A stretch of DNA of 64,000 nucleotides from Pycnococcus provasolii (Eukaryota > Chlorophyta > Pseudoscourfieldiophyceae > Pseudoscourfieldiales > Pycnococcaceae), in assembly GCA_938743325.2 (NCBI GenBank), contig OW568866.1, positions 62,001 through 126,000 on the forward strand, read 5' to 3'. Below are positions 11,802 to 61,330 of the stretch, piece by piece (position 1 is the stretch's first letter; each line of letters begins with the position of its first letter). Position numbers and translations under genes: made by a program. A model generated the notes under the pieces. That model searched no databases, was not told the origin of the DNA, and saw only the letters and a program-made list of their open reading frames with translations.

Positions 11802-12143
11802 GGTGTTTGCGCCCCGTGACTGCCCCGGGGAAAAAAGCGCGAATGCGTGCGGGCGATGTGTGTCCCTTCAAAAACCTGTCTCCGGCGTTCCCGCCCCCGA
11901 AAGAAATCTTCCCTAAAAACAGTTTCAGCCCACCTTCCGGCTCCGTTTCGCGGTGATGGGGATCGTGCGTGCCCTTCGCGCGGATGCTGACCAGTGGTAC
12001 GCCAGGCTCACACTCGCCACCACACTCTCTAACGTAAGCAGGTAGAGCTCGAGCACACGCCGGCGTGCGCGCAAATGTCGTAAACGTCCCTGGCGTTTGG
12101 TGGTGGGGACTCCGGAGCGTGGGGGCGCGCGGAAAAGGAGGAG
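11802..12143. other. Intergenic region, 5' flank of the giant chromatin gene
   Basis: About 340 bp between the chromatin gene start (11801) and the MITE. Frames here are short and their translations are not protein-like. It probably holds the promoter and 5' UTR of the minus-strand gene. No recognisable element apart from the GGAGGAG run that abuts the MITE. Confidence 0.5.
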
Positions 12144-12544: not shown

Positions 12545-12563
12545 GTTAGGGTTAGGGTTAGGG
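12545..12563. repeat. Short interstitial telomere-type repeat (TTAGGG)n
   Basis: GTTAGGGTTAGGGTTAGGG, about three units, ending 19 bp before the ATG at 12583. It is too short to be a telomere; a promoter/5' UTR box like the plant telo-box is possible. Confidence 0.7.
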
Positions 12564-18411: not shown

Positions 18412-18772
18412 GGATTGGATTCGATCGAGTTCAATTTTTCTTTCTGTAGCGGGAGTTTCCTGTCTGACGGAACCCCGAACTAGGGAGCCTGGAGGAGCAC
18501 GTGGCCCTCGCGTTGACGTGGCATCACGCTGCTCGGGGCGCCCCCTTTTACCCTACTTTCTCAGTAACAACCGATCATACTTTTCTCCAGTCGCAGCTCT
18601 CACGCACACTGGTGAACGGCACGCTGCTCAACGCGGCGGCGCTATCACAGGTAGCTAACCCAGCTACATTTCCTAGTTTTGGCGGAGTCGGGGTTGATAA
18701 TGCGAAATTCGGAATCCATTGGTGCTGATTGATTATTTCATGTGAAACTGTTACAAGTTACAACAATCGTCA
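18412..18772. other. Intergenic region between two minus-strand genes
   Basis: 361 bp with no protein-like frame. It should hold the promoter and 5' UTR of the oxygenase-like gene and the 3' end of the sulfotransferase transcript: TTACA (TGTAA on the minus strand) occurs at 18751-18755 and 18758-18762, just past the sulfotransferase stop. Nothing else recognised. Confidence 0.6.
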
Positions 18773-21040: not shown

Positions 21041-21258
21041 TGAAAATTGAAATGACCACCCAAATCAACGACGGGCCAAGTCCTGAGGAGGAGAATTCAT
21101 CGGACTGTCAAAAAATCGATTAAAAACCGCGAACAAGACGCGACCTCGCCGCCTGCAGTTCAAGCACGGACCCCCAAGTCCCAATTCCCAGCCCCCTGCC
21201 CCGATGCATCCCGGCGGCGGCGCTTGGTCTCCCGGATATACCCACACACATGCAGTGA

Positions 21259-26092: not shown

Positions 26093-26314
26093 CGACGACG
26101 ACGACCACCTTAAAATAATGTTATTTATTCATAATTATTATCGGCCTCACACCAACATCACATCTCACATCTCAACAGGTTGTTGCATATTAGTTGGTAT
26201 GTGTAACCCTAGTTTAGCATGCAACTTTTTTAAAACCCTAACGGCACTCCCGGCGGGGGTACCACGGGGGTACGGGTGTTGCTCCCCCCTCTTCCCCTCT
26301 TCCAATCATTCGAC

Positions 26315-28658: not shown

Positions 28659-29834
28659 CTATGCGCCGGCGACGGTGGGGGCTGCCGCCGGCGGCGCAGA
28701 TGGCGGCGGTGCAGACGCGGCGGGCACGCCGGCGGGTGCATTCCCTTTGTTCGCTTTCGCGTTGACCGCAGCTGTCGCCTTACGGCGAGTCGTATCTTTC
28801 TTTCCGCGAGATGCAGCTGCGGCAGGACCGTTTGCGATCTTGCCCTTCGTCGGCGGCGGTGCAGACGCATCCAGGCTGCCGATTGGCATACGAATGCACA
28901 CACCAAGCGAAAGTACGAGTCCATCGCCAGAGCCGTCTTCGCGTGTGACAGCGTCACGAAATGCGCGCAGCACAGTTGCGACGCTCGCCTCACCCATCGA
29001 GCACGTGGGAAAGAATCGCGGCGGCGAGTATGCTGCCGCATTCTCCATTTGTCCCGATCGATTCGGCAAGTAGAGGGTGAGATTCTGCTGAGCAAGCTCT
29101 TTCGGGATGGAGAGGCGCTCCATGAGAAAGGTGAGAAAGCGCTCCGCTGCCACGTTGGTAGTCCTACTATTGGATAGGTCCAGGCTGAAGTCTTGCGATG
29201 ATACCCAGTGCGTACTTACCGTAGAGAGCGCCACGGACGAGAGCGACGGTGCCTGCTGCTGCTGCTGCTGCTGCGGTGGCTTCGGCTGCTTTTTCTCCGG
29301 CATCTTGCGCTTCTTCGTCGGCGGGACGAAATCTTCTGCGTCTGACTCGTCGGCGACGACGTTGATGTTGTTGTTGTTATGCTGCACCGCCTCACGTCGC
29401 GTATTTCCAAGCAAGGTTTGCCCCAGGTTGGTAGGTGGTGGTGGTACTCCGTTGCCGACCTCCTCCGTCGCCATGGCTGGCGCGAGCGACGTGAATGCGC
29501 TTCGCAGGAAGAGGGCATCTTCCTCGGATCCGCCGTGCGACGTTCCGTTCGTGCGCATGCCGCTCTCCTGCTGTTCCGGGGACGTGTTCATGCTTCGCGT
29601 TGTTGGCACCATTGCCGTTGACACGGGCATTGCAGGTGGCGGAGCGAGCATGTTGTGCCATCGCATGCGTGAGAAGAGGTTTTCGTTATTCGTAATGGTT
29701 GGGGACACACCAGTGCCACCAGTGCTATTATTGTTATTAGCAGCAGCTGCGTGACTACTCGTCGGCACGAGTATGGTGGTGATGCGAAGCAGCACGGCGC
29801 CGAAGTCGACGTGACTGATATAGTCAGTAGCCAT
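28659..29834 (-). CDS. Unrecognised, probably nuclear protein with NLS
   Basis: 391 residues from the ATG at 29834. I chose this start because the frame upstream to 30218 reads through AT-rich promoter-like DNA. The N-terminal ~20 residues (MATDYISHVDFGAVLLRITT) look structured; then comes a disordered Asn-, Gln- and Pro-rich region with a basic cluster KKRKMPEKKQPK (likely NLS) and a seven-Gln run. A folded-looking block (~215-320) contains VAAERFLTFLMERLSIPKEL and FRDAVTREDGSGDGLVLSLGV. The tail is Ala/Pro/Lys-rich. No family recognised; a transcription or RNA-processing subunit is a guess from composition. Confidence 0.6.
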   Translation of the reverse strand: MATDYISHVDFGAVLLRITTILVPTSSHAAAANNNNSTGGTGVSPTITNNENLFSRMRWHNMLAPPPAMPVSTAMVPTTRSMNTSPEQQESGMRTNGTSHGGSEEDALFLRSAFTSLAPAMATEEVGNGVPPPPTNLGQTLLGNTRREAVQHNNNNINVVADESDAEDFVPPTKKRKMPEKKQPKPPQQQQQQQAPSLSSVALSTVSTHWVSSQDFSLDLSNSRTTNVAAERFLTFLMERLSIPKELAQQNLTLYLPNRSGQMENAAAYSPPRFFPTCSMGEASVATVLRAFRDAVTREDGSGDGLVLSLGVCIRMPIGSLDASAPPPTKGKIANGPAAAASRGKKDTTRRKATAAVNAKANKGNAPAGVPAASAPPPSAPPAAAPTVAGA

Positions 29835-30223
29835 GCCTGCTAATAAGGGGAAGGAATAATGTGTGACTACGAAGCAGGCCTGAAGTGAAGTAAGTGAAGG
29901 GAGGCCTGCTTTGGTTTGGCAAAGCAGACCCCCACCTGGGACGGACGGTTTCCCATCCCAAACAAACGGCACACAGATGACAGAAAGAAGAAAAACAGGG
30001 AGAGTTCGGGGTTTCATAATTCGGGGTTTCATGGGATTCTCCAGCTTCTTCGAGGAATCGTTGTTAAATTTTTTCTCTGCAAGGGGGAGGGACCCTTTTT
30101 CCCTTTCCCTTTTCACATCGGCATTGTCCTTGAGGCCCTTTGTTTGCCCCCCCCACCCCTGTTTACCCCGGCCGCAAACTGACAGCCCTTTCCTTTTAAG
30201 AAGCGTTTCACACGGCACTTTCC
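29835..30223. promoter_or_regulatory. Divergent promoter with tandem TTCGGGGTTT boxes
   Basis: 389 bp between the starts at 29834 (minus) and 30224 (plus). TTCGGGGTTT occurs twice in direct orientation at 30005-30014 and 30020-30029, a 15-bp spacing, matching the motif of three other divergent promoters here. The rest is G/A- and T-rich low-complexity DNA with no protein-like frame. Confidence 0.5.
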
Positions 30224-30967
30224 ATGCCGCTCGTCATCAACAAGGCGCCCGGCGGGATGGGCGTCCTGCCCGTCTCAATCAAACTAGCTAGCAACACGTC
30301 GCCGCCGACGGCACTATCGCAAAACAATAAATACGCCTTCAACCGAAAGGCAACCACCGTCGTGTGCTGCAACTCTGCAAACGACAACAACGCGTCGTCC
30401 ATCGGAGAAACGTCGCCGGGAACACAGTCAGTCATCAACAACGTACTGCGAGTACTGCCAGCACGAACGAAAACCAAGCAAAAAAGTCCGCCTCCGAAAA
30501 TGCTTCCAGCCAACCAAGCGGCGGTCGAACTCGACGAAAACGCACCACCTGGACCACTCGTGGACCTAGGCGACGACACCAAACCCGTTTGCGTCGTGTG
30601 CAGGGAAACTGTCGAGAACGGTTCGAGGTGTATCGAGTGCCCACACTGCTCAGCAAGGACGCACGGAAGCTGCCTGCACCGGTGGTTCATCTCGCAGAAC
30701 GAACTTTCAAGAACAGCCATCGCGAGAAAGGGGACGTGCCCGTGCTGCCGTGCAACCATCAGGTGGGAGGAGGCGGTGAACGACATGCGCGACAGGGCAA
30801 GTGGAGGTGCGGGCCGTGCCAGCGGGCTTAGTACCAAGTCGCTCGTGAACATGAGCGAAAAGGTGCTGCTAGGAGGTGTTCTTGCGGAAGCGTCGCTCGA
30901 CGACAGCTCTCGCCGTGCGTCCACAGGACACAGGGCGTGGCAGTTCTTCACCGGACGCCTGCGCTAA
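30224..30967 (+). CDS. SLX1-type RING/PHD-like zinc finger protein lacking a GIY-YIG domain
   Basis: 247 residues. Residues ~124-185 carry CVVCRETVENG, CPHCSARTHGSCLHRWF and GTCPCCRATIRWEEAV, the spacing of the C-terminal zinc finger of SLX1, including the CPCC and the following Trp. The N-terminal 120 residues are disordered and basic and show none of the GIY-YIG nuclease motifs that precede this finger in SLX1; none appear in the 389 bp upstream either. SLX1 is the nuclease of SLX1-SLX4, which cuts Holliday junctions and flaps; this protein could bind SLX4-like partners without cutting, or be an E3-type RING. The role is inferred. Confidence 0.6.
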   Translation: MPLVINKAPGGMGVLPVSIKLASNTSPPTALSQNNKYAFNRKATTVVCCNSANDNNASSIGETSPGTQSVINNVLRVLPARTKTKQKSPPPKMLPANQAAVELDENAPPGPLVDLGDDTKPVCVVCRETVENGSRCIECPHCSARTHGSCLHRWFISQNELSRTAIARKGTCPCCRATIRWEEAVNDMRDRASGGAGRASGLSTKSLVNMSEKVLLGGVLAEASLDDSSRRASTGHRAWQFFTGRLR

Positions 30968-32058: not shown

Positions 32059-32396
32059 TGCAGCAGAAGAGATAGTGAAGTGCACTACCGTATCGTATCG
32101 TATCGTATCTGCCGACGCCCAGGTGGACGGATGAAGATGAAGGGGGAAGAGGGGGAGGGAAGGGAAAGGGGCGGCCCCTGGGGAAAGGAACGAACACCTC
32201 AGAAAAGGAAGGAGGATAGCAGATTGCATTGCGTGGGTGGATAAGCCTCCCAACCCTAACCCTAACCCTAACGCCAATACCGCTTGATAGGATTCCGTTC
32301 AAGAGGGAATCCCCTCCTCGTCCCTGTGACCGTTGGTGCCCTCCTCCCCCCGAAAAAAAGACCCAAACCTTTACAGACCACTACATACTACTTGAA
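32059..32396. promoter_or_regulatory. Divergent promoter with a telomere-type tract
   Basis: 338 bp between OR (minus) and the sialyltransferase-like gene (plus). It contains AACCCTAACCCTAACCCTAAC at 32252-32272 (three units), a purine-rich run, and a short CGTATCGTATCGTATC direct repeat near 32091-32107. No protein-like frame. Confidence 0.55.
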
Positions 32397-43255: not shown

Positions 43256-43296
43256 CCTAACCCTAACCCTAACCCTAACCCTAACCCTAACCCTAA
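43256..43296. repeat. Interstitial telomere-type repeat (CCCTAA)n
   Basis: Six exact CCCTAA units (43261-43296) plus a partial one, the longest such tract in the window, 125 bp upstream of RAB6. It follows a G-rich run. It is internal, so not a chromosome end; it may be a telo-box-type promoter element or a scar of healed breakage. Confidence 0.8.
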
Positions 43297-44322: not shown

Positions 44323-47199
44323 ATGGGCGTCAACGTCGCACCCACGCACGGACGGCCCGCGCAGGCGTACGACGGGCTCTGGCTCGGGGCGCCGCACCCC
44401 ATGTTGAGGCAGCACACGGCGCAGCAGGGACCGGCTCTGCGAACATCCTCACTCATGAACAACGTGCAAGGAACCAAGGGAACGGCGGGGCGCACCGTCA
44501 GACTCAAGGAGTCCCCTCAGCACATGCAGCCGCGCATGCTGCCTCTTCTCAACGAGCAACTCGCAAGCAGGGAAACGAGGTACCAGGAGCTACGCGTGGG
44601 CATGCAGCAGCGCTCGAGCAACCCATACGGCGAAAAGACGCTCGCGACAGCTAGCGCGCTCCGGCCGAAAACGACGCCTTACAACCACGCGAATCCCCTA
44701 GTACCGCCACGGGCACCCACCGCCACGGGCGCCGTGGGTGGCGGATTTTTCATCAGCTCTGGACAACAGGCCATGGCGCCTCAGACTGCAGCAGCCAGCG
44801 CGGCGCAGCAGTACGTCGTTCGGCTGCCAAACACGCGAAGTCAGCCGCCGGCTGGCTTCAGCGTGAACTTTGAGCTCGTGGGAACGACGTCGCGTGCAAG
44901 TATGCGCTCAAGAGCGACGCCGTACCTGCCGCCCGCCGAGGCGACGACGAGGCAGGCAAACGGCGTCACTGTGCCATTTGCCGCAAGGCCGCACTCGCAG
45001 GCCCACGCAACGGCATCGCGAGCAGGTGGAGGGGGTTCGTTCAAGGGGTCCGTGGTTGTCGGCCTCACGACGACGAGCTCTTCGGGCGAAATGACCACGG
45101 CGGCTGCCAAGACGCGCTTTACCGTCGACGCTGTCAGCCTCCTTCCTCCTGCCGAGAAACCATCACGCGCGGAGCCTGCGAGACGGAGCGTTCCCGTGAC
45201 GACGCAAGGACGGCGTGCCAAGGCATTTGCAGCGCTAGAGCAGCAGCATCCTAGCAGCAACGGCCTCGCGCCGCGACCTCTGGGAGGCGTGCCTGGCACG
45301 CGACGGCCGGCTCAGCAGGCCCTCGTGACGGCAGAGCAGAGTGAGCCTATGCTCTACGTCGGCGCACCGCCACCGCCAATTGCAAGCCGAAGCACCCGAT
45401 TTAATGCACCCGGTCAGCCGATCATTGGCAACCAGTACCTTGCCGGAACTGTCAAGGGAACGCGCAGCGGCGCGCAGCTCGCGTCGGATCGGAACGGTGA
45501 CCTGTACATTGGCATGGTTCCACAGCCAACACGCGAGCGCGGCACGCGCACCCTTGGCCGCCTGCCCGAGGGATTTGGCAACACGGGCAAGAAGGCGGTG
45601 ACCACGCTGCCGTACGGCGCAGCTCCCGCGCCCGAGGTGAACAGGCCCGCGGCTCCGACGTTCGTGCTCAACGCAGGATTCGCCGCAGCTCGCGTGCAGG
45701 ATGCCATTACCAAGGCAAACGCGAAGCGCTTCGATGCCGAGGCGCGTGGCGAGCTCGAGGCGGCGATCGAGGCGATCGCGCCCAGTGCGCCGAAGGGTGA
45801 CCCGCTCCTTGCGAGTGCCCAAGCTGCACTCAAGGCACTGTGGAGACGCGAGGCGGCACGCGAGAGGCTGATGCGCGCGATGGATTTCTCGGGCCCACCC
45901 GCGGGGTTGGTGAATGCGCTCGCCGAGGCGCTCGACGCGGCCATGTCAGCCGGCGTTGTGGAAACCGAGTCGTTGATGAGCGAGGCTTTGCGCGAGCTGA
46001 AGCGCGCGGAGGAGGATGCGCGCGCAGATGCCCGCCGTGCCGGAAATGCCGCGGCGAAGGCAGAGGCGGCAATGCGAGAGGAGGAGGCTGCACTCGTTCA
46101 CCCGCTGCCCACGGAGGCTGGCGCGCGGACGCTGCGCGACGGCCGCTTCGTCGTGCAGACCGTCGTTGGCGAGGGCGCGTACGGCGTCGTCATGCGATGC
46201 ACGGATCGCGGCGAGAAACCGACGGCGGCGCACAAGACGGTGGCGGTGAAGGAGTTCAAGGTGGAAGATTCGGATCCGGATGCTGAGGACGTGCGCCGTA
46301 CAGCTCGCCGCGAGGTGAGCCTGCTGAAGCGCATGCAGCATCCTCACATCGTTCGATTCATTCAGGAGTTTGACGAGCGCGAGAAGCTGTTCATCGTGAT
46401 GGAGTTTGTGCCAAAAAACTTGCTCGAAGTCCTGGAAGATGCACAAAGTCGCAACGGTCGAGGCGGGCTTCCCAAGCCGGTGGTGAAGCGTATTATGTAC
46501 CAGCTGTGCCTTGCGCTGGCGTACATCCACGAGTGCGACATCGTGTACAGAGACGTGAAGCCGGAAAACTTACTCGTCGCGGAGCGCGTTCCCAACGCAT
46601 CGGACAACGTAAACCCCGCTGCTCTGCTCGACCGAGGCGACGGCGTTGGCGTCGTTTTGGAGATGAAGCTGTGCGACTTTGGATTCGCACGGCCTCTCGG
46701 CCCGAACACGAGCGCGGCAGACAAGAGCCCGACGTGGCCGGATACGGATGACATCTTGACGGACTACGTGGCGACGCGGTGGTACCGTGCGCCAGAGCTC
46801 CTGCTTGGCCCGCCTTTCCCAAGCGAGCGGGACCCATCTGCTCTCGTGCACAGTCCGTACGGCGTTGGCGTGGACATGTGGGCGGTCGGCTGCCTGATGG
46901 GCGAGTGCCTGGACGGAGAGCCTCTCTTCCCCGGCGACTCGGACATTGATCAGCTGCGTCGCGTTCAGGAGATGCTCGGCCGTCTCACGACGAAGCAGCT
47001 GGAGCTGTTCCTTCGCAACCCGTCGAATACGAATGCGTCTTTCCCCTTCGACGGCCCGCCAATTGGTCTGGACGCGCGGTACGGACATTTGCTCAACGAC
47101 GTTGAGCTTAGCTTCATGGCTGACCTGCTTCGCGTTGACCCGAAGCAGCGCATGTCCGGCGAAGAGTGTCTTGCCCATGCAATTTTCTCCGACGCTTGA
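44323..47199 (+). CDS. CDKL-type (cyclin-dependent-kinase-like) Ser/Thr kinase with long N-terminal extension
   Basis: 958 residues. The first ~590 residues are disordered, rich in Ala, Arg, Pro and Thr, with several internal short RSxxTRFN/ RGTRTLGR-type repeats; residues ~560-600 are helical. The kinase domain (~605-955) has GEGAYGVV, VAVKEF (catalytic Lys), YRDVKPENLL (Tyr replaces the usual His of HRD), DFGFARPL, TDYVATRWYRAPELLL (CDKL/RCK-type TxY loop), DMWAVGCLMGE and a final RMSGEECLAHAIF. CDKL kinases such as Chlamydomonas LF5/CDKL5 control flagellar length. The insert between DVKPEN and DFG is longer than usual. The kinase is C-terminal, whereas animal CDKL5 has it N-terminal. Confidence 0.88.
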   Translation: MGVNVAPTHGRPAQAYDGLWLGAPHPMLRQHTAQQGPALRTSSLMNNVQGTKGTAGRTVRLKESPQHMQPRMLPLLNEQLASRETRYQELRVGMQQRSSNPYGEKTLATASALRPKTTPYNHANPLVPPRAPTATGAVGGGFFISSGQQAMAPQTAAASAAQQYVVRLPNTRSQPPAGFSVNFELVGTTSRASMRSRATPYLPPAEATTRQANGVTVPFAARPHSQAHATASRAGGGGSFKGSVVVGLTTTSSSGEMTTAAAKTRFTVDAVSLLPPAEKPSRAEPARRSVPVTTQGRRAKAFAALEQQHPSSNGLAPRPLGGVPGTRRPAQQALVTAEQSEPMLYVGAPPPPIASRSTRFNAPGQPIIGNQYLAGTVKGTRSGAQLASDRNGDLYIGMVPQPTRERGTRTLGRLPEGFGNTGKKAVTTLPYGAAPAPEVNRPAAPTFVLNAGFAAARVQDAITKANAKRFDAEARGELEAAIEAIAPSAPKGDPLLASAQAALKALWRREAARERLMRAMDFSGPPAGLVNALAEALDAAMSAGVVETESLMSEALRELKRAEEDARADARRAGNAAAKAEAAMREEEAALVHPLPTEAGARTLRDGRFVVQTVVGEGAYGVVMRCTDRGEKPTAAHKTVAVKEFKVEDSDPDAEDVRRTARREVSLLKRMQHPHIVRFIQEFDEREKLFIVMEFVPKNLLEVLEDAQSRNGRGGLPKPVVKRIMYQLCLALAYIHECDIVYRDVKPENLLVAERVPNASDNVNPAALLDRGDGVGVVLEMKLCDFGFARPLGPNTSAADKSPTWPDTDDILTDYVATRWYRAPELLLGPPFPSERDPSALVHSPYGVGVDMWAVGCLMGECLDGEPLFPGDSDIDQLRRVQEMLGRLTTKQLELFLRNPSNTNASFPFDGPPIGLDARYGHLLNDVELSFMADLLRVDPKQRMSGEECLAHAIFSDA

Positions 47200-47537
47200 T
47201 AACTAAGATCACTCATTCAGTCATGGAATGTAATTTACTTTAATTCGTCCAACGGTCGTTCACTATCAGGCGGCTTTTCGCTGGCGTCCGGCGTGAGAGC
47301 TTCACTTACTTGCGCACGTTGTCATGGTTGTCGTCGCCGTCGCCAACCAGCTGTGCAACAACAACAACAACACGATGGCTGAAGAGTTGCACTCATGACT
47401 CTGCCTAGACATCATCATCTAAGGGAGAATGCAGTTTTGTGGGAAAAGGAGTTGAGGTTTTGTATAATCACAATGGTATTTTACACACACTACAGTTCTG
47501 GGCGAACAACAAACACATCACGGAGAAAAGAAAATTG
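47200..47537. repeat. 3' flank of the kinase gene containing dispersed repeat copy B (47240-47455)
   Basis: Holds TGTAA at 47229-47233 and, at 47240-47455, sequence homologous to 40340-40640: the exact 29-bp block at 47273-47301, flanked by matching CGTCCAAC, TCGTTCAC, TGTCGTCGCC, CACGA..GCT and GGGAAAAGGAGTT words. No protein-like frame. Confidence 0.7.
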
Positions 47538-47837
47538 CTATGCGGCAAGAGGAGTTCTCTGCTGAAAGTACGTGACAACGACGTACCGTCCCGCGAGGTT
47601 GTATCCCGACAGTCCGTCGTGTGCGTTTCGCGCGTCGTAGATGTCTTCGTACACGACGTACGCGGTTCCTTTCGTCTTTGCGTTCGTTCCCATTCTGACT
47701 TGCCTGATGGCGCCGTACTTTCCGAAGGTGTCGTACATGGCGTTTGCGGAGACGTCGAAGGGGAGGTTGCGCACGTAGAGTATGCGCGTCACCTCGGGGG
47801 GCAGGCGCAGGCCACTAGTATTGTGAGGCACGGACAT
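47538..47837 (-). CDS. SF3B6: SF3b subunit p14/SF3B6 (branch-site RRM protein)
   Basis: 99 residues from the ATG at 47837. It is one RRM nearly identical in pattern to human SF3B6: [39 protein letters not shown], then [36 protein letters not shown]2 is ILYVRNLP and RNP1 is [10 protein letters not shown]3B6 contacts the branch-point adenosine within U2 snRNP's SF3b complex. The protein ends about 20 residues earlier than human SF3B6 (125 residues), lacking the Lys-rich tail; this could be genuine or due to an unseen 3' exon. A TAACCCTAA box lies about 55 bp upstream of the ATG. Confidence 0.93.
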
Positions 47838-47975
47838 GAAGAACAAGTATTAAAATATGGCGGCGGCGAGGGGTAAAAATCTCCATGTGCCCTCCCCGTA
47901 ACCCTAATACCCCCTGGCGCTGCGCGGGCTCTTCGGGAGGGTGCGCGCAGCACTAACTGCTAGGATCTTTGGTCG

Positions 47976-48091
47976 CTGGGAGTGTAATGTGAGCTCTTTT
48001 ATGTGTGGGTGAGCCCACCACATCACATTCATGCTGGGAGTGTAATGTGAGCTCTTTTATGTGTGGGTGAGCCCACCACATCACATTCATT
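47976..48091. repeat. Exact 58-bp tandem duplication with internal hairpin
   Basis: Two adjacent copies, 47976-48033 and 48034-48091, identical but for the last base. Each contains inverted arms AATGTGA/TCACATT with a nested GTGGG/CCCAC pair (GTGGGTGAGCCCAC). Noncoding, between SF3B6 and the recombinase/RNase H frame. Confidence 0.85.
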
Positions 48092-48193
48092 CCTTCACAT
48101 CAATGTTATCCCCCTCAGTATAGTACTGGATGTGTGGGTAGACAGAAGGTTGGGAACGGGCGGGCGGGATGAAACTTCGACGTTGTGTGTTAA

Positions 48194-48214
48194 CTAGGGT
48201 TAGGGTTAGGGTTA
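48194..48214. repeat. Interstitial telomere-type repeat (TTAGGG)n
   Basis: CTAGGGTTAGGGTTAGGGTTA, three and a half units, followed by degenerate AGCCCTAATCCTAA up to the stop of the minus-strand recombinase/RNase H frame. Confidence 0.75.
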
Positions 48215-48228
48215 TCTTAGCCCTAATC

Positions 48229-50382
48229 CTAATTTAGCTTGGAGCGAGCGATCATTAATATCGGCTCGTCAATCAGCTGGATCGGGATGGTCTGGCACTC
48301 GTGTACGCGTGGCTGCCATGCGAGGATCGCCGGATGTGCAGTGGCATCCTCCATGGTGGTACGCGTCGGGATGTCAGCCACATTGGCCTTCGACGCTACC
48401 CATTCGCCCCACAGAGCGATATTGTGCATCGCCAGCAGAATGCTAATGCAGTTAGCAATCGCCGAGAGTGACGGTTTTGTTGCGTAACCGTGTATGATGG
48501 CAGACAGCGCTGTGGTGTTGTCGCCCAGGTACACGACTGTGCGGTCCCTCGCCGTGTCCCCAAAGTTCCAAAGCCAGAACAGGAGCACGAGGAGTTCGTA
48601 CTGGTTGATTGCACGTTCAGTGTGACCCCCGCCGGCAGCGAGTTCCAAAGCGAGGAATTTCTGGAGCGTTATTGGGACGGTTGTCGCCGCGATTCCAGTG
48701 GCGGTTGTTGCCAGGTCCTTCCACACGATCGCGATGCGCGGTGTGCTCCCTCCAGTGGCGTCGCCGTACACGAGGATAGGCGGACGCGGGGGTCGCCGGC
48801 AGTGATGTACTCGTGGCGGTAGAGCCGGTAGCAGCGCGACGAAGAAACGTAACGCCGCGCTGAGCGGGCGGGTGAGCCGTTGCGTGTCATCCCGACCCGC
48901 GGCGCGATGCCAGAGCGGCTGGATAGCTGCGCGCCCGATGCGGGCGAACGCTGACGCCGTGGCGAACATAATTTTGCCTGCTAACGATGCTGCGGTAGCC
49001 GGCGCACACTCGTGTGCCTGCAGCGGGCGGATGTGGCGCTCGGTCGGCGTCAGTGGCACGGCGTGATCGTGCTGGGCCCCCGATAGAGCCCATCTGCCGA
49101 TTTCATTAGCATCCATGGGAGGCATGAGAAAGGCCTTGGCGGACTCCGTGAGCACATGGCGCGGGGAGTGCTTCGTCATCAGCTGTGCATACGGCACGGG
49201 GACCCCGGCGGCGAGCAGGCACCCGCGCAGCGACTGTACGGCACGCTCGCCGAGACACGGTGCGGACAGCCATGCCCGCGCACTGCGGGGGTCTCCCGTG
49301 TCGCGCTGTCCCGTTCGTGCAGCAGTGTCACGAAGGAGAGTGGAGTGGTGCGGCACCGCTGCGGACATGTGCAGAAGCATGTCGAATGCGAGCGTACCGC
49401 CCTCGAGTCCAACTGTGGGCATCCACGACGGGCGCCTGCGCATGCGCATGCGGTTGGGGTTTTTGTCGATCGCCCGTGCTGTCGCTAGCTCCGCGCTGAT
49501 GCGGACCAACGTCGCCTGCACAAATTGTGCATGGCGATTGCACGAGAGTGCCATGGCATGCCACGCAGCGGCATGGCATCGGAGGAAGACCGATTGGCTG
49601 CGGTCGGAAGCCAGGCGTTCCAGCGCGATTACCATGCGTATCGAGAGCGCCATGGCGGGCTGCGATGGTGGTGGCGGTGCAGGCACTACGTGCCCCACCC
49701 TTGCCAGTGCGGGCGTAGGCGACACTTCGAGCCCGAAGTGCCGCTGCAGCCAGGCGAGAGCCCTCGCCAGAGATTGTCGTACTGACGATCCCGTAGTGAT
49801 GCGCGCTGTGGGGGAGCCCCCCCGTCGCGCAGCATCATCGCGTCTGCCACGAGCACGCTCGCGGGCGTCCGTGTCTGCCTTTTCAAGGTACGCGAATGCC
49901 ACGAGGGGCGTGATGGTCACGTCGCGCGCCCGGGCAAACTGTTGCAGTTCGTCCAGCGCCCGCGCGCCGACGGCGATGGTGTCCGGCGCGAATGTCGCTG
50001 CCAGGCGGAGGTGGATCGTGAGCGTAGGCGCCACACCATGACGGGTGAGCTGCGAAACGTCGATCCCCAGCGGAAAGGCAATCGCCTCGGGAGGCAGGAT
50101 GCCGAGGAGTCGTCGTGCTGCACGGTAGCACGCGGCGTGCTGGAAGTCCACCGCCGATGCCCCCTGCGAACTGCCGCGCAGTGTGGCATCCGACGGGATT
50201 GCCATGCGGGCAACCGCTGCATTCCAAACGCCGAGAAACGCGTTCAAATTCTGGATGTCGTCGTTGTTTCCCGACGCCATCGCTGGATCGCGTGGATCGT
50301 ATGCACGACGAATGAGGATGCTACCCACGGGGGTGGGGTTCCATCTAGAGGGGTTTCTTTCCTCGGACTCATCACTGGGCAT
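48229..50382 (-). mobile_element. Retroelement-related ORF: tyrosine-recombinase-like region joined to an RNase H domain (DIRS-like affinity)
   Basis: One long frame of about 717 codons. Parts, N to C: a ~200-residue helical region; a probable tyrosine-recombinase catalytic region (about nt 49640-49020) with HSPRH as the HxxR box followed by an IGRWA stretch; a connection-like segment (about nt 49010-48780, FATASAFARIGRAAIQPL); and an RNase H domain (about nt 48770-48290) with VYGDAT, NQYELL, LGDNTTAL and NVADIPTR supplying D, E, D, D. The last two parts resemble the connection and RNase H regions of DIRS-type elements in marine protists. I see no reverse transcriptase palm in the frame. Telomere-type words lie on both flanks (48194-48214 and near 50458). 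The frame looks whole; no terminal repeats were recognised. It may be an element part or a domesticated gene. Confidence 0.6.
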
Positions 50383-50555
50383 CCGATTCACTGCTCGCTA
50401 CGAGGGTATACTTTCCGGATGAATCCTCCAAGGAACCCTAGTTTGGAAATCATAACAACCCTAACCATTCCCCCCCTGTTCTTTTCCTCTTCCTTTTCTT
50501 CTCATTTGGATAACCCCCGCTCCCTTTTCCCCCGGAGGCTACCACCTTACTATTC

Positions 50556-52325
50556 ATGGCGGGCCCACGTGTAAGTTTTTCTTGGTGCATGGCGGCGCGC
50601 TCCTTCTCAGGAGTAGCGCGTGTTCCAGTCTTGAAACACCACAGGCGTTCCGTCGCACGTAATTCTCCGCGGGGGGGGTGGGATTCAACCCTAGGGCGCG
50701 TTCGTTGGGGGGGCGTGGCACACGCTTCTTCGTCGTCGTCAGCACATGCGGACTTCCACGACGCGTCCAAGACGTTCACGTCGCTCAACATACACCCAGC
50801 AGTCACGTGCGGACTCAAAGTCTTGCTGGAAACAGATAAACCGACCGTCATACAGGCAAGCGCAATACCGGACATACTCAGTAACAGCCACACCGTCATC
50901 GCCGCGGAAACTGGATCCGGAAAAACCGTCGCGTACATGGCACCCATATTCAGCCAAATCGTCAACCAGAAACGAGACGACCAAGCGTCGGGAAGAAAAC
51001 CTAAGTGGCACGAAAGAGGAGTCGTCGTCGTGATTTGCCCAAACGCTACACTCGCGAGGCAGGTGGCGGCTGTTGCAGCGGAACTCGCCAAGGCGGTTGG
51101 CGCAAGCGACGAAGGCGCGAAAGTGAACGTCGACTGCTTCGTCGCAGGCGTGCCTCCGCCAACCTCGCCGCCGGACGTTATGGTCACCACTCCCGCGACG
51201 CTACTTGGTGTGAGCGACTGGTTTGGCAAGCAGAAAAATAGACAGCGATTCGTGCGCACGATGCGTGTGGTTGTGTTCGACGAGGCGGACGTGCTACTTT
51301 CCGGTGGGCTGCAGGAAGATATCCTCACGCTTCTTGAGTGGCTGCGAATAGACGACAAGTGGAAACGCCAGGACGAAAGAGAGGAGGGGAAAGATCGCGA
51401 GCAGGATGCTGCCTCCTCCTCGTCGTCGTCGCCGTCGCCGCCGCCGTCGTCGCCAACAGACACGTACCGGCTGTACGACGACGACGAAGAAGAAGACGAC
51501 GATTCAAGTCCTGCACAGCAGGAGCAGGAAGTGGTAAGCGCTGACGACGACGTGCAGTCGCTGAAGTGGCGAGGGCCACGGACGTACGTGTTCGCTGGCG
51601 CCACGATTCCCGACCGTGGGAAGGGTAGCGTTGCGGGAATGCTGCGCCAACGATATCCCGACGCCAAGTGGGCACGCGGGCCGCGACTGCACAACATCCT
51701 GAGCGAGCGCGTCAATCAGCGTTGGATCAACGTCGCGGACAACGATGCGGCGGAGACTGCGCTGAAGGACGTGCTGACGTCCGACGGCGCGTTCGAAGCA
51801 GGACGCAGGACGATGGTGTTCGCGAAGACGGTCAAGGCGGCGGAACGCGTCGCCGACTGCGTGCGTGCCGCCGCGGTGGAGGCAAACGCGCATGATGCAG
51901 AGATATTCGTCTATACGAAGAATACGCACGTGTCAGAGCGCTTCGAAATGATTCAGGCATTTGGTGAGCGTGGTGGGATCTTCGTCTGCACCGACAGTGC
52001 GAGCCGTGGCATCGACGTGAAGGGCGGTGTTCAGCACGTCGTGCAGGCTGACTTTGCGCAGGATGCGGTGAGCTATCTGCATCGCGTCGGACGCACGGCT
52101 CGCGCGGGAGCGAGCGGGTCTGCAACATCTATTGTACGTCCGGCGGAGAAGGTTCTTGCAGACACACTTCGTGCGGCGGTGGAGAGCGGCGTCGCGATTG
52201 AGGACTCCTTCTCTCGCAATCGCCAGTTTGCGAAGAAGCGTAAAAAGTACGGCGACGATCATCACATGAATCTTGTGCGCGAACGCGTCAACGAGTCGAA
52301 GCCGACAGCATCATCGTCTACGTAA
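50556..52325 (+). CDS. Organelle-type DEAD-box RNA helicase
   Basis: 589 residues. An Arg/Ser-rich N-terminus (~1-55) looks like a transit peptide. Helicase motifs: F upstream of Q-motif PTVIQASAIP (~95), AETGSGKT (motif I, ~115), TPATLL (Ib), DEADVL (II, ~230), GAT (III, in place of SAT), a RGIDVK motif (V) and HRVGRTARAG (VI, ~510). An insertion rich in Asp/Glu/Ser (~270-330) separates motifs II and III. Similar to plant RH22-type and DDX28-type helicases, which act in organellar ribosome assembly; the organelle is not decidable. The C-terminus is basic. The stop is 55 bp from the convergent gene. Confidence 0.88.
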   Translation: MAGPRVSFSWCMAARSFSGVARVPVLKHHRRSVARNSPRGGWDSTLGRVRWGGVAHASSSSSAHADFHDASKTFTSLNIHPAVTCGLKVLLETDKPTVIQASAIPDILSNSHTVIAAETGSGKTVAYMAPIFSQIVNQKRDDQASGRKPKWHERGVVVVICPNATLARQVAAVAAELAKAVGASDEGAKVNVDCFVAGVPPPTSPPDVMVTTPATLLGVSDWFGKQKNRQRFVRTMRVVVFDEADVLLSGGLQEDILTLLEWLRIDDKWKRQDEREEGKDREQDAASSSSSSPSPPPSSPTDTYRLYDDDEEEDDDSSPAQQEQEVVSADDDVQSLKWRGPRTYVFAGATIPDRGKGSVAGMLRQRYPDAKWARGPRLHNILSERVNQRWINVADNDAAETALKDVLTSDGAFEAGRRTMVFAKTVKAAERVADCVRAAAVEANAHDAEIFVYTKNTHVSERFEMIQAFGERGGIFVCTDSASRGIDVKGGVQHVVQADFAQDAVSYLHRVGRTARAGASGSATSIVRPAEKVLADTLRAAVESGVAIEDSFSRNRQFAKKRKKYGDDHHMNLVRERVNESKPTASSST

Positions 52326-52380
52326 AACACTTGTTTGTTTGTTTCGTCTCTTCTTGAATCTGTTTCGTTTGTTTTTACTG

Positions 52381-53121
52381 TCACACGTCCATTCCACGTT
52401 CACGAAACTTCTTCAGAAGCGGATCCTCCTCTTCGTCAGGCTGCATTGTGATACCGGACGCCTTTTCTGTGGCGCTGCGGATCCTCTCTTGTGCCGCATC
52501 AGCCTTCTGCGCCATGATTTGTCGTTCGAAGATTCGAACCGCATCAGCGAGCTGGTCAACCCCTCGCCTCGCCTGGTCCGCACGTCGCCTCGCGTCGTCC
52601 GCGTCGGACTCCATCCCCTGAAGACGTCTGTTAGCCTCTGCACGCCTGCCAAGGTGCGACCTAGCGGCGTCGTCGTCACCTGTTTTCACCGCCTCCTCGG
52701 CATCCGCATAAGCCTGGTCCGCGATGAGCTTGAGGTTGTTTACGTCTGTGTTGAGTCGGTCTGCGTCAAGAGCAAGCACACGCGCGGCATCTTCCGCATC
52801 CGCCAAGTCGTTTGCGAGTTCCTGCGCCTGCTCGACTTGTTCTCGCGTGACGCCCATGCGCCTGAGTTCATTCTCCTCCGTCTCCTGCACCTGTCTGTTG
52901 AACTTTTTGTTCGCTCCCATAGATCCGCCGATTTGCGATCCCAGGATGGCGCCAAACGGTCCCGCGATGAGTCCCCCGAGCACAGCTCCACCGAGCACGC
53001 CTTTCACATCCTCGTTTCCACCACCACCAGGAGACTTGTTGGAGGCACGACGAACGAGGAGTGAGGGAGCGCGCAAGGGAGAGCGCCATGAAGGAGCGCG
53101 CAGTTGAGGAGCCGTTGCCAT
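52381..53121 (-). CDS. Glycine-zipper coiled-coil protein, probably organellar
   Basis: 246 residues from the ATG at 53121 (in-frame codons upstream are less likely). The first ~30 residues are basic and presequence-like. A glycine-zipper stretch (~40-67, GVLGGAVLGGLIAGPFGAILGSQIGGSMG) could insert in a membrane. The remaining ~170 residues form a long Ala/Asp/Arg-rich coiled coil with a tail ending KKFRERGMDV. The helix composition is reminiscent of PspA/IM30 (VIPP1), but I see no signature that fixes the family, and PspA lacks a glycine zipper here. Function unknown; membrane-associated scaffold is the cautious reading. Divergent to the GT77-like gene. Confidence 0.6.
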   Translation of the reverse strand: MATAPQLRAPSWRSPLRAPSLLVRRASNKSPGGGGNEDVKGVLGGAVLGGLIAGPFGAILGSQIGGSMGANKKFNRQVQETEENELRRMGVTREQVEQAQELANDLADAEDAARVLALDADRLNTDVNNLKLIADQAYADAEEAVKTGDDDAARSHLGRRAEANRRLQGMESDADDARRRADQARRGVDQLADAVRIFERQIMAQKADAAQERIRSATEKASGITMQPDEEEDPLLKKFRERGMDV

Positions 53122-53268: not shown

Positions 53269-53421
53269 CAGTAAGAAGCGCGCCCCCCTCCCATTGATTT
53301 TCTCTCCCGGTCTCTCGCCCTCTCTGCGGCCTCGTGTCCTGCTCAGTGCTCACTTGTGCAAGGCCGTGCACGTGCGCACTCCCGCTCGTGATCGATCAAC
53401 TTGCGCCGGCACGAACCAAGA

Positions 53422-56298
53422 ATGGCGAGCCAACGGACGGCCAGCCGCTTCGTCAAGTACGTGCTCGTCATATGCACGCTGTCGTTCGCGCTCTCGCTCG
53501 TCTACGTGCTCGGACGACCGCTCTACTGGAGACTGCTCGCGACGACGCCCGTCTCAGCCTTTCTCAGATCGTCAACATCAGAAAGGTCGAAGTCGTCATC
53601 ATCATCTATGCGTGGTTTTGAGTTTCTAGACTCTGTATTTGAGACTGTCGCAACAACGACGGGGTCTAGCAGTCAGCCTTCTCCCGAGGTGGACGATAGT
53701 GATAGCACGCCGGAAAGTTCTTGGGAGGAGAAGCGAGAGGACCAGAATGCCCAGTCGCCTGAAGACGAGGCGGAAGTTGAGACGCGGCAAACGCCTGAAC
53801 AGGAGTTCACAACCACCACCGTCGACGACGACGCTGCCACCTCTCCCGACTCACCCGACTCAGAATCCATCTCAGCAGCAGCCTCAGCAGCTACAGAAGC
53901 GGCAGCGCACCGCAGCCACCACAGCACACCACTCACAGCTGGCTCACGCGAACTGCGCTACCCATTCTTCGATCCCGTCAAGCCGTATTCTCCGTTCCGA
54001 AGTCTGGGCTCCACCAAGCCGTGGTGGGGCGAGCTCGAAGAACCTGGCGCGCTGAAAGAGATGCTGGAAGCGCGAAGTTTCAAGGGCGAGCTCATCATGC
54101 TCACGACGGACGCTGAGAGACTCGAGCTGTCCGCCAACTTCATCAACATGCTCGTTCACAGGTGGGGATTCGATCACTACATCCTCATCGGACTCAACGA
54201 AGCATCGTGCGTCAACCTGAGAGATTCCGACGCCGTTTACTCGTATCCAATTAGCTGTGCCTGGAGCAACTTCCTGGAAAAAGATTTGGTGGCGGCGGGA
54301 AGCAGCTTGAAAAGGATTTGGAATGGCATTAACCACATGAACAACATAGCGCAGCTGTGGATGACGAGGCACCGCCTCATGGAAAAATTCATCGACCACG
54401 GCGTGAACGTGCTGTCCATTGACAACGACGCTGCCATCGTCACGGATCCGTACATAGATTTCAAGTCATCCAACGCTCGCGATGACGGCGTCAGCCCCGG
54501 CGACGTTGAGCTATTTGTGCAGCATCACGGTGGATTTCCGGGCATATGCGCGGGAGTGATTTACCAGCAGAACGCGAAGCCAGGTGGTGGCGTTCAGTTC
54601 TTCTTCCACGAGGTGTGGAGTCGCATGCTGGATGCGGCGAAGGGACCGCCGCTCTTTTCGCAAATTCCAGGGCAGGTGGGAGCGCCGTTCATCGAGTCGT
54701 ACACGTTTGACCAGGGACCTACCGATGACGTGATTGAGAGCTCCGTGGGTGCCACGTCGGAGAACTGCAATGCAGCAAATAGGTACGCGCACGAAGGAGT
54801 TTTGCTGCTTGTGAAGGATGAGATTCAGAGCGTGCCGCCCCGCTGGGAGGATGTGGAGGAGAATCGACGCATGCCTGCTTGGACACGCGATCACATCGTG
54901 GCGGGAGGTGGTGGACCATGCTCGACGAGCTTCCGCCACCAGCTGTGGAAGCTGCAGAACGACCATGCTGGATTTATCGACAGCTTCGCAAACGACGAGT
55001 GGACATGGGTCAAGGGCACGGTGAAAGATCATCTGCTCAGCGTCCCAAAGGTGGGCCGTGGGGAGCCACTCAAATGCTTCCGTGACCTGATGCTTCCCAT
55101 GTCGCAGCCGCACGTTTTGGAGGGTGGCAGGCACGAGCGCATTGGCATTGCGCCCGGATACATGGTCAGCGCCTGGTCAGACGCCTTGGAGAGTGCAACG
55201 TGGCACGTCAAGGGTGGGGGCAGTGCACTTGCACACGTCGTTGGGCAGAGCGGTGGCAACATCAACAAGGTGTTCATCATGCGCGCCCTTGGATGGTATC
55301 ATCCGAGATCAGATAAGGCGGCGGGGATGGAGCGCATGATGAAGGGTCTTCTGGAGCGTAGGAATGAGCTTGAGACGTTTGCTAAACCTCCTCCTGAATT
55401 CCATCCCGGCGATACCGTGTGGGACGCATTCGAGAAAGCCGTGCGAGAGAATCGCGTGGACTTGACAGAGGGTAGCGGGCCACGCATGCTCGCCTTCAAG
55501 TCAACACCCGGTCTCTTGAAAATGCTTAGCACGTCCAAGGAGGTGTTTCGCGCCGCATTCGGGCGGCTCTTTCTGATAGCTCTTTCGCTAGGGCGTAAGC
55601 CGGTCGTACCGCTCATTCCATGCTCCGCGCCGTGGTTCTCCCAGCGGCCTGAAAACTACGCCACGAATACCATCCTTCGCGATGTGCAGGCACTCTCGAC
55701 TCCCGTGGCTGATCCGCTCGGGCCAGCACCTCCCGAGGCGGGTCGTTGGGAAGGTGTAGGCTACGGTGCAGACGGCACGGGATCTTCATTTGGCCATAAC
55801 GCCGACACGGCGCTGTGCTACTGGAACCCGCTTCTGAACTACTGGCAGATTTGCGACGAGCAATTTCTTTACCATCACCACGACATCGCGACTTACACAG
55901 CACGTGTGCCCATCGAAGGATGGACGTTGCCTGGCGATCGCAACGTCGTGAGTGTGTTGGAACCGTGCAAGGGCTTGGCGGGAACCAACGGGACGTACGA
56001 TGCAGGTTACCTGCTTACGCACCCGCCAACAATGAAACTCGCCGCGCTGCATGCGCTAAAGGATGTTCCGATCGTTTACCTTGACGTGGGCGAAGAGACG
56101 GACCCGTCGTGCGTTCCGGCGGTGGAAGCGGAGGAAGTGATGAAGTACATGGCTGATAGCAATTGGCAAAAGTACGTTGTCCACATGAGTAATGCGTTCC
56201 GGGCTTGCTCGGTTTGCACGGATAGCGACGAGTGCCGCAAGATTTGGGTGAGGCCGGATTGGACATATAAGCCGGGTGAGCCGCAAGACAACTATTAA
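53422..56298 (+). CDS. Large GT77-like (nucleotide-diphospho-sugar transferase) type II Golgi protein
   Basis: 958 residues from the ATG at 53422. One anchor (~10-34, YVLVICTLSFALSLVYVL), then a disordered acidic stem (~55-180). The first catalytic-type region (~215-500) fits Nucleotid_trans/GT77: ELIMLTTDAERLELSANFINMLVHRWGF, HYILIGLNEASC, NVLSIDNDAAIVTDPY with DxD metal motif, and VELFVQHHGGFPGICAGVIY. A second region (~690-955) has FGRLFLIALSLGRKPVVPLIPC, CYWNPLLNYWQICDEQF and paired cysteines near the end; I do not recognise it, but similar tails occur in algal GT77-like proteins. Expected role: glycosylation of cell-surface or wall glycoproteins, e.g. arabinosyl- or xylosyl-transfer. TGTAA lies at 56325-56329. 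Confidence 0.8.
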   Translation: MASQRTASRFVKYVLVICTLSFALSLVYVLGRPLYWRLLATTPVSAFLRSSTSERSKSSSSSMRGFEFLDSVFETVATTTGSSSQPSPEVDDSDSTPESSWEEKREDQNAQSPEDEAEVETRQTPEQEFTTTTVDDDAATSPDSPDSESISAAASAATEAAAHRSHHSTPLTAGSRELRYPFFDPVKPYSPFRSLGSTKPWWGELEEPGALKEMLEARSFKGELIMLTTDAERLELSANFINMLVHRWGFDHYILIGLNEASCVNLRDSDAVYSYPISCAWSNFLEKDLVAAGSSLKRIWNGINHMNNIAQLWMTRHRLMEKFIDHGVNVLSIDNDAAIVTDPYIDFKSSNARDDGVSPGDVELFVQHHGGFPGICAGVIYQQNAKPGGGVQFFFHEVWSRMLDAAKGPPLFSQIPGQVGAPFIESYTFDQGPTDDVIESSVGATSENCNAANRYAHEGVLLLVKDEIQSVPPRWEDVEENRRMPAWTRDHIVAGGGGPCSTSFRHQLWKLQNDHAGFIDSFANDEWTWVKGTVKDHLLSVPKVGRGEPLKCFRDLMLPMSQPHVLEGGRHERIGIAPGYMVSAWSDALESATWHVKGGGSALAHVVGQSGGNINKVFIMRALGWYHPRSDKAAGMERMMKGLLERRNELETFAKPPPEFHPGDTVWDAFEKAVRENRVDLTEGSGPRMLAFKSTPGLLKMLSTSKEVFRAAFGRLFLIALSLGRKPVVPLIPCSAPWFSQRPENYATNTILRDVQALSTPVADPLGPAPPEAGRWEGVGYGADGTGSSFGHNADTALCYWNPLLNYWQICDEQFLYHHHDIATYTARVPIEGWTLPGDRNVVSVLEPCKGLAGTNGTYDAGYLLTHPPTMKLAALHALKDVPIVYLDVGEETDPSCVPAVEAEEVMKYMADSNWQKYVVHMSNAFRACSVCTDSDECRKIWVRPDWTYKPGEPQDNY

Positions 56299-59779: not shown

Positions 59780-61330
59780 TCACTCCTCCCGAGCAGGGTC
59801 TCGGGGTACAAACTCCCTGCACAGTGTCCTGTCACGCAACCTGCAGAAATCATCACGCGATAGCCCCTTAGTAAGAAGATCAGCCAATTGATCCTTTGTA
59901 TCGATGTATCGCAGCTCCAACACTAGACGTCGCACCTGATCGCGCACATCTTGCAGCCGCACATCGATGTGTTTAGTGCGTCCACTATAGACAATGTCAC
60001 GCAGAATTGTGATGGCAGCTGTGTTGTCCTCGTACACGATAGTTGGCCCAGGTACGATGATACACAGTTCTCCGAGGGCACGCCTTGCGACGATGATCGA
60101 TGCGCAGTTGTCAGCAAGTGCAATGAGCTCGGCTTCCGTACTCGATTTGGCAGTGAGATGCTGTTTGGTGGACTTCCACATAAATGCACCTTGCTGTCCA
60201 AAGGCGCCCAGCATGCCAGAAATCGACTTGCGGTCAGCTTCTCCAGCGAAATCGGCATCCACATAGGCGCGCATGTTGGGGATACCGGCCATTGCAGGAT
60301 AGAAGATTCCATAATCGACCGTGGTGCGTAGGTGGCCGATAATGCGCTCGACCATCTGCCAGTCGGCTTCAGTAGGACTTGCCATGCCTTGAGCAGCGGC
60401 TCGTGTGGCATAGGCGAGGTCTGGACGGCTGAGATTGACGAGGTAGAGCAGCATGCCCACAGCTTTGCGAAATTGTCCAGCGCGAGCTTCAGAAAGCGAA
60501 GGAGACGGCATCGGGGGAGGTTCACTGCGCGTAGGCGTAGCAAAGGAACCGAGTACATCAGGAAACGTATCTAAGATACGTTGGGCGTATGCGGTCTGGT
60601 GTACGCGCACCCCGGATGTCGTGCGGCAGAGTTGTAGACCAATGATCTGGGTAAGCTCGGCGCCATCCTGCCGCGTGATCTTATCGAAGGCGGCGCGCAA
60701 CGACTTATAAGCCTCCTCCACATCAGCGGAGCGCTGAGCGAAAACGCTGATGTCACCGTGCTCCGAAAGGATTGTCACCGGCAGTCCTTCGACGTAGAAC
60801 AATTGTGCCCTGCTTGACGCAGGCCATAGAGAGACTTGTTCAGCTTCCAGATCATCGGATTTCCTTTCAAATCAAGCCGTTCCAATCCATATGGCGGCCT
60901 CATGTAGATGACCTGCTCCAAGAAACTGTGCAGGTATGCCGCTGTGACATCAAATTCCTCCTCAATGAGGCCAAGTGAAAGTGACGTCCACAGAAACATC
61001 CTCATCGTTGACAACTTCGGCGTGCTTGCATATGTCTCGTTGAAGTCGATCCCAGGTATCTGAGTAAAGCCTAGTCCCCAACTGGGGGTTTGCACCACAA
61101 CCGTCTTTGGCTGGCTTTTCATCAATCACATGAAATAGGTACTTCCCAGTGATCCTGCCCGCCAACGGTGACGGCATTTTTGGTATCTTCTTGTGCCCTT
61201 TTCGCTTCACAGCATGGAGCGCTGCTTTTGCGCGTTGCTGCCATCCAGGAAAGAGAGATACTGAAATGCCATCAAAGATTCCATGATTGTCGCTGTCACT
61301 CGGTTTCGTCTGCGAACCCATGAGGCTCAT
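59780..61330 (-). mobile_element. Ty1/copia retrotransposon fossil (reverse transcriptase and RNase H portions)
   Basis: Minus-strand remnant of a copia pol region. Recognisable parts are the later part of the reverse transcriptase (FDVTAAYLH, then MRPPYG and LNKSLYGLRQ) and a copia RNase H region (YVDADFAG, KSSTEAELIAL, YEDNTAAI, TKHIDVR and DLLTKGL). The element is broken, with at least two interruptions, and is incomplete on its 5' side; gag and most of integrase were not seen. No paired LTRs were recognised, so age cannot be estimated from them. The composition is richer in A/T than the neighbouring host genes. Confidence 0.85.

What the first reader, a model, noticed from the sequence alone, without database searches (positions are those of the whole stretch)
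48229..50382. Frame joining a tyrosine-recombinase-like region to a DIRS-type RNase H without a reverse transcriptase palm
The frame places an HxxR-type recombinase box (HSPRH) ahead of a connection-like segment and an RNase H with its D/E/D/D set. Known DIRS-type elements carry RT-RNase H and a recombinase, but in other arrangements and with RT present. A recombinase directly fused to connection plus RNase H is, to my knowledge, undescribed; it could be a new element class, a partner ORF of an element whose RT is elsewhere, or a domesticated gene. It is the best candidate here for an undescribed system.
Basis: partly seen in the sequence, partly recalled or inferred. Interest (0 to 1): 0.75.

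Follow-up and report, generated by a model that had tools for sequence, protein, structure and literature searches.

The report
Broken jumping-gene protein without reverse transcriptase
A single gene in what is probably an alga's chromosome looks like the two ends of a recombinase-type retrotransposon protein joined together with the middle missing, most likely a crippled leftover rather than a new kind of mobile element.

Summary
The frame is real: 722 open codons on the minus strand (48229-50397, first Met at 50382), with host-like codon positions. Its C-terminal part carries an RNase H D/E/D/D set (strict motif in 0 of 20000 shuffles). Its middle carries R, K, HxxR and W at exactly Xer-like spacing (28 of 50000 shuffles), but the nucleophile position is His and there is no Tyr from residue 404 to 543. 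No RT palm motif lies in any frame, and no convincing terminal repeats. No Pfam, NCBIfam, PHROG, PDB or home-made profile recognises either half, and AlphaFold without relatives gave no usable model, so both domain names rest on motifs written after seeing the sequence. No relative was found in viral, prokaryote, phage or plasmid collections; no host genome is held. Kinetoplastid VIPER/TATE elements already have the order Gag-YR-RT/RH. One in-frame deletion from inside the recombinase to the RT thumb would remove exactly the two missing parts. I read it as a deletion remnant of a YR-RT-RH retrotransposon, unable to recombine or reverse transcribe alone. Domestication is possible but untested. 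"New element class" is not supported.

The parts
48229..50397 (-). Whole open frame, stop to stop (722 codons; first ATG at 50382, 717 aa)
   Evidence: length and codon test
49651..50382 (-). N-terminal part, residues 6-249, no recognisable domain; possibly recombinase core-binding region (by eye only)
   Evidence: no family match; no PDB match
49078..49650 (-). Tyrosine-recombinase-like catalytic stretch, residues 250-440: R288, K312, H410xxR413, W436
   Evidence: exact Xer-like spacing, 28 of 50000 shuffles; no profile or fold support
49063..49065 (-). Codon at the nucleophile position (W436+9): His445 instead of Tyr
48793..49059 (-). RT thumb/connection-like stretch, residues 447-535 (assigned by eye, from recall of DIRS-type RTs)
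   Evidence: sequence only; no profile match
48343..48780 (-). RNase H-like domain, residues 540-685: D546, E601, D626, D675
   Evidence: strict motif 0 of 20000 shuffles; fold not confirmed
47975..48090 (.). Two perfect tandem copies of a 58-bp unit, 3' of the frame; able to fold; no copy on the 5' side, so not shown to be an element end

Best explanation
The frame is a deletion derivative of a tyrosine-recombinase retrotransposon that encoded recombinase, RT and RNase H in that order (as VIPER/TATE do). One in-frame deletion ran from just behind the recombinase's HxxR...GRW segment to the start of the RT thumb, removing the recombinase's tyrosine helix and the RT fingers and palm together. 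The product could at most bind DNA and cleave RNA in RNA-DNA hybrids; it cannot make the covalent Tyr-DNA intermediate or copy RNA. It is therefore immobile by itself, and its open frame is most simply explained by a young deletion. Shown: the frame, the motifs, the missing Tyr and missing palm motif. Inferred: the domain identities, the ancestral order, the single deletion, its age, the activities.
For: RNase H D/E/D/D in a strict context. R/K/HxxR/W at exact Xer spacing but His at the Tyr position, and no Tyr from 404 to 543. No RT palm motif in six frames of 47850-50550. The two missing parts are adjacent in a YR-RT-RH protein, an order published for VIPER and listed for TATE, in one frame in Bodo saltans TATE. 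A thumb-like stretch (SLAGKIMFATASAFARIGRAAIQPL) follows the recombinase stretch directly (sequence; assignment by recall). No convincing terminal repeats and no second copy in the window.
Against: No profile recognises either half: Pfam, PHROGs, NCBIfam and PDB gave nothing relevant, although DIRS/Ngaro recombinases of fungi are found by PF00589 (PMC3783388, section 12). In a home-made recombinase HMM the protein ranked 96th of 603 listed sequences (score -1.2; the six best are its own shuffles), matching only at residues 129-170, not at the catalytic motifs; in an RNase HI HMM it was not among the 445 listed. My first RNase H motif missed it. Structure models are unusable and the one Foldseek search gave no significant match. 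No relative was found, so neither the parent element nor the deletion junction has been seen. In Bodo saltans the single-frame TATE copies had no predicted YR or RT domain. A 722-codon frame with no stop is unusual for a dead remnant.
Confidence: 0.5

Rival explanations
1. A domesticated host gene: the host kept the fused DNA-binding and RNase H parts of a YR retrotransposon for its own use, for example as a nuclease or DNA-binding factor, and selection keeps the frame open.
For: Long intact frame with host-like codon-position G+C; all four RNase H acidic residues kept; sits as a single gene between two host genes without convincing element ends. Precedents: a VIPER-derived gene kept in trypanosomatids (PMC5146736, passages) and ALOG transcription factors derived from a DIRS1-type recombinase (PMC3537659, passages).
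Against: No orthologue found in any collection searched, none of which holds eukaryotic genomes as such; codon score below that of the nine correctly framed reference genes, which trained the table; selection cannot be measured from one copy.
Confidence: 0.2
2. An ordinary host or orphan gene of unrelated origin whose resemblance to recombinase and RNase H is chance.
For: No family or structure match at E up to 10 other than chance-level ones; home-made HMMs do not find it; loose motif patterns occur in 2-3% of shuffles; patterns were composed, and one was altered, after seeing the sequence.
Against: The strict RNase H motif (0 of 20000) and the exact recombinase spacing (28 of 50000) occur together, in the order of a known element type.
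Confidence: 0.2
3. A non-autonomous mobile element, or one partner of a split element, that keeps a recombinase-RNase H protein and borrows RT (and the tyrosine) from another copy: the first reader's new class.
For: Frame intact; RNase H residues intact.
Against: No convincing terminal or split direct repeats round the frame; no second copy in 64 kb; nucleophile absent.
Confidence: 0.1

Closest known systems
VIPER and TATE retrotransposons of kinetoplastids (VIPER-like group of the DIRS order)
   Same: Recombinase gene ahead of RT-RNase H; two Bodo saltans TATE copies have the three genes in one frame (PMC6681497, sections 6-7; PMC5146736, passages)
   Different: Here no RT palm motif, no recombinase tyrosine, no recognised Gag-like frame, no split direct repeats; sequence relation not shown
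PAT-like (TOC3, Kangaroo) elements of green algae
   Same: YR retrotransposons known from algal genomes (PMC4157794, PMC3266345 and PMC8226300, passages)
   Different: As described there they carry RT, YR, a methyltransferase domain and split direct repeats; RT, methyltransferase matches and such repeats were not found here
DIRS1-like elements
   Same: YR plus RT-RNase H
   Different: The catalytic YR part lies in the 3' end of the YR frame beyond the overlap with pol (PMC3266345, passages), so YR follows RT-RH; here it precedes RNase H
VIPER-derived domesticated gene of trypanosomatids (PMC5146736)
   Same: A long frame holding only part of a YR retrotransposon, with no element remnants round it (passages)
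   Different: That gene resembles the C-terminal part of the third VIPER protein with RT and RH domains not conserved, and is kept at one locus in several species; here the RNase H residues are kept and no orthologue is known
Crypton transposons
   Same: Recombinase without RT (recalled; only the opening of the abstract of PMC3212892 was seen, in the listing)
   Different: Cryptons have no RNase H and need their tyrosine (recalled); the tyrosine is missing here

Membership tests
YR retrotransposon (DIRS order) | Reverse transcriptase palm | tested here: not met
   No [YFVIL]xDD in six frames of 47850-50550
YR retrotransposon (DIRS order) | RNase H with D/E/D/D | tested here: met
   Motif level only: D546, E601, D626, D675, strict motif 0 of 20000 shuffles after a first version missed it; fold and profile unsupported
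YR retrotransposon (DIRS order) | Split direct repeats or inverted terminal repeats | tested here: not met
   (46800-52500, 16 nt or more) lists 9 direct families and 15 inverted pairs; only two weak pairs lie on either side of the frame with both copies close to it: a 17-nt inverted pair of telomere-type repeat (82%) and a 25-nt direct pair (72%) whose left copy lies in the RRM frame. Flank searches found no other pair
YR retrotransposon (DIRS order) | Several copies in the genome | not testable with these tools
   No genome held; in the window tblastn finds only itself, next best E 0.039
Tyrosine recombinase | R, K, HxxR, H/W at characteristic spacing | tested here: met
   R288, K312, H410xxR413, W436; 28 of 50000 shuffles
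Tyrosine recombinase | Nucleophilic tyrosine | tested here: not met
   His at W+9; no Tyr between residues 403 and 544
Tyrosine recombinase | Profile or fold match | tested here: inconclusive
   No Pfam match; HMM from 48 viral-contig Xer-like proteins ranks it 96th of 603 listed, among shuffles; model pLDDT 36
Crypton | Recombinase as the only enzyme domain, tyrosine intact (definition recalled) | tested here: not met
   RNase H-like C-terminal part and no tyrosine
Domesticated retroelement gene | Conserved orthologues at the same locus under selection | not testable with these tools
   No eukaryotic genome collection on hand; no relative in those searched

The most novel reading that the evidence does not exclude
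A recombinase-derived DNA-binding domain with its nucleophile replaced, fused to an active RNase H, and kept by the host or by a non-autonomous element as a nuclease directed at RNA-DNA hybrids (for example against R-loops or against reverse-transcription intermediates of related elements).
Probability: 0.12. Interest if true: 0.6.

Novelty: new variant of a known kind. Interest (0 to 1): 0.27.

Why it matters
If it is a remnant, it hints that YR-RT-RH retrotransposons existed in this lineage in the recombinase-first order that, in the papers seen here, is described for kinetoplastid VIPER/TATE; that bears on how YR elements were assembled. If it proves conserved and expressed, it would be a rare case of a retroelement gene kept for its DNA-binding and RNase H parts.

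Tried and rejected
Family searches of the whole protein and of pieces (Pfam, NCBIfam, PHROGs; pieces were given to Pfam and NCBIfam only) and PDB sequence searches gave nothing relevant; the only NCBIfam row (a radical SAM family, E 0.28 for the whole, 0.059 for the C-terminal piece) and the PDB rows (kinetochore protein KKT14, E 0.73; triosephosphate isomerase, E 0.78) are chance level. AlphaFold on the whole protein (pLDDT 36) and on the RNase H part alone (pLDDT 39) failed for want of relatives; a Foldseek search of the latter gave no match at E below 0.001 (best 0.68). Relatives were sought by protein in viral contigs, GTDB genomes, phages and plasmids (four Serratia tail-fibre records at E 0.7, chance). 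Degenerate DNA patterns for DIRS-type RT, RNase H and thumb gave 0, 0, 0 and 6 stretches; the six frames were read by eye and show no RT or RNase H. Home-made HMMs from viral-contig Xer-like recombinases and RNases HI (of 80 loci in each set I passed 51 and 55 to the script, leaving out by hand mainly near-duplicates and short matches; 48 and 55 had no stop and were used) did not separate the protein from its own shuffles.

Considered and rejected: telomere-like repeats at 48197-48213 and 50457-50473, an inverted pair bracketing the frame, as insertion scars, because the 8-mer AACCCTAA occurs 16 times in the window at seven places. The 58-bp tandem repeat as a terminal repeat, because no copy lies on the other side. 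Rfam and tRNA scans gave nothing (47000-51000, whole window).

Full report
What was checked. The frame is as stated, with the start at the first ATG (50382) and the stop-to-stop frame reaching 50397. It is not a chance opening: 300 shuffles of the region reached at most 315 codons, and the base composition by codon position is like that of neighbouring genes. The frame lies between an RRM-protein frame (47538-47849, minus) and a DEAD-box helicase frame (50514-52325, plus). The window is eukaryotic: protein kinase, tubulin-tyrosine ligase, MAP65, sialyltransferase and a UVR/YccV protein are among 20 frames scanned. The last of these suggests a plastid-bearing alga, which is my inference from recall. 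No whole genome is held.

The C-terminal half. Residues 540-685 carry D546, E601, D626 and D675. My first RNase H pattern, which asked for two residues between Asn and Ala-Asp near the last Asp, missed the protein. Allowing one or two, the strict context occurs in none of 20000 shuffles and in no other of 125 window frames of 150 aa or more; a loose form occurs in 481 of 20000 and in one other frame. No profile recognises it, an HMM of phage-type RNase HI does not list it, and the single-sequence model is not usable. I take it as an RNase H of the retroelement kind at about 0.85, on motif grounds; the DIRS type as such was not testable.

The middle. The exact pattern occurs in 28 of 50000 shuffles and in no other of the 125 frames; a looser one in 625 of 20000 and in 2 of the other 124. 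Nine residues after the W, where XerD has Y279, stands His445, and the protein has no tyrosine between residues 403 and 544. So this is at best a recombinase stretch without its nucleophile. Pfam's recombinase family, which finds fungal DIRS and Ngaro recombinases (PMC3783388, section 12), does not find it, and an HMM of 48 Xer-like proteins ranks it 96th of 603 listed sequences, its own shuffles holding the top six. I take the recombinase reading at about 0.65.

What follows the recombinase stretch. Residues 447-535 read to me, from recall, like the thumb and connection of DIRS-type RTs. No profile matched them, so this rests on recall alone. No RT palm motif of the form [YFVIL]xDD is present in any frame of 47850-50550.

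How it fits known elements. In VIPER the YR gene spans 1510-2517 and the RT/RH gene 1386-4214 (PMC5146736, passages). TATE is listed with Gag-like, YR and RT/RH genes, RT being in ORF3, and two Bodo saltans copies have the three in one frame; the same table reports no copy there with predicted YR and RT domains (PMC6681497, sections 6 and 7 read). In such an element the recombinase tail and the RT fingers and palm are neighbours, and these are exactly the parts missing here. One in-frame deletion explains both losses. This is inference: no parent copy has been seen. In DIRS1 the catalytic YR part lies beyond pol instead (PMC3266345, passages).

Element ends. Among 9 direct families and 15 inverted pairs in 46800-52500, only two weak pairs lie on either side of the frame with both copies close to it: a 17-nt inverted pair of telomere-type repeat (82%) and a 25-nt direct pair (72%) with its left copy in the RRM frame. 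The telomere-type repeat is common in the window and I do not take either pair for an element end. No second copy lies in the window. A perfect 58-bp tandem duplication lies 3' of the frame, with more stable folding than 200 shuffles (z -3.3), but has no partner on the other side.

Function. If the reading is right, the protein cannot recombine or reverse transcribe by itself; an RNase H activity and DNA binding are the only functions left that I would expect. The simplest view is a young dead remnant. The open frame and the intact RNase H residues leave domestication open, with precedents in a VIPER-derived gene and the ALOG factors (PMC3537659, passages).

Novelty. Word searches of the held open-access library were made (30 of 35 papers listed, 11 of 11, 15 of 30, 15 of 90, 10 of 48, 10 of 11). 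In the titles and opening lines of abstracts listed I saw no recombinase-RNase H protein without RT; the papers themselves were not read for this except the passages and sections named here. I rate it as an unusual, probably degenerate derivative of a known kind.

Noticed in passing
window 12546-12559, 26234-26241, 32252-32271, 43259-43296, 47900-47907, 48200-48213, 50457-50464: AACCCTAA (telomere-type repeat, like plant telo-boxes) occurs 16 times against 0.62 expected, at seven places; some lie near the 5' ends of host frames (26234, 32252, 47900, 50457).
   Followed up: partly
window 47975-48090: Two perfect tandem copies of a 58-bp unit that folds better than shuffles, between the RRM frame and the frame of the finding.
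   Followed up: partly
window 1311-11867 (-): A single open frame of 3518 codons; not searched against families.
   Followed up: no
window 20432-20824: Three copies of a 132-bp unit (44 codons) inside the frame 18773-21064 that has split sulfotransferase matches.
   Followed up: no
window 16981-18552 (-), 28659-30233 (-), 53392-56298 (+), 59780-60871 (-): Long frames (523, 524, 968, 363 aa) without any Pfam match at E 0.01, four of the 20 frames scanned.
   Followed up: no
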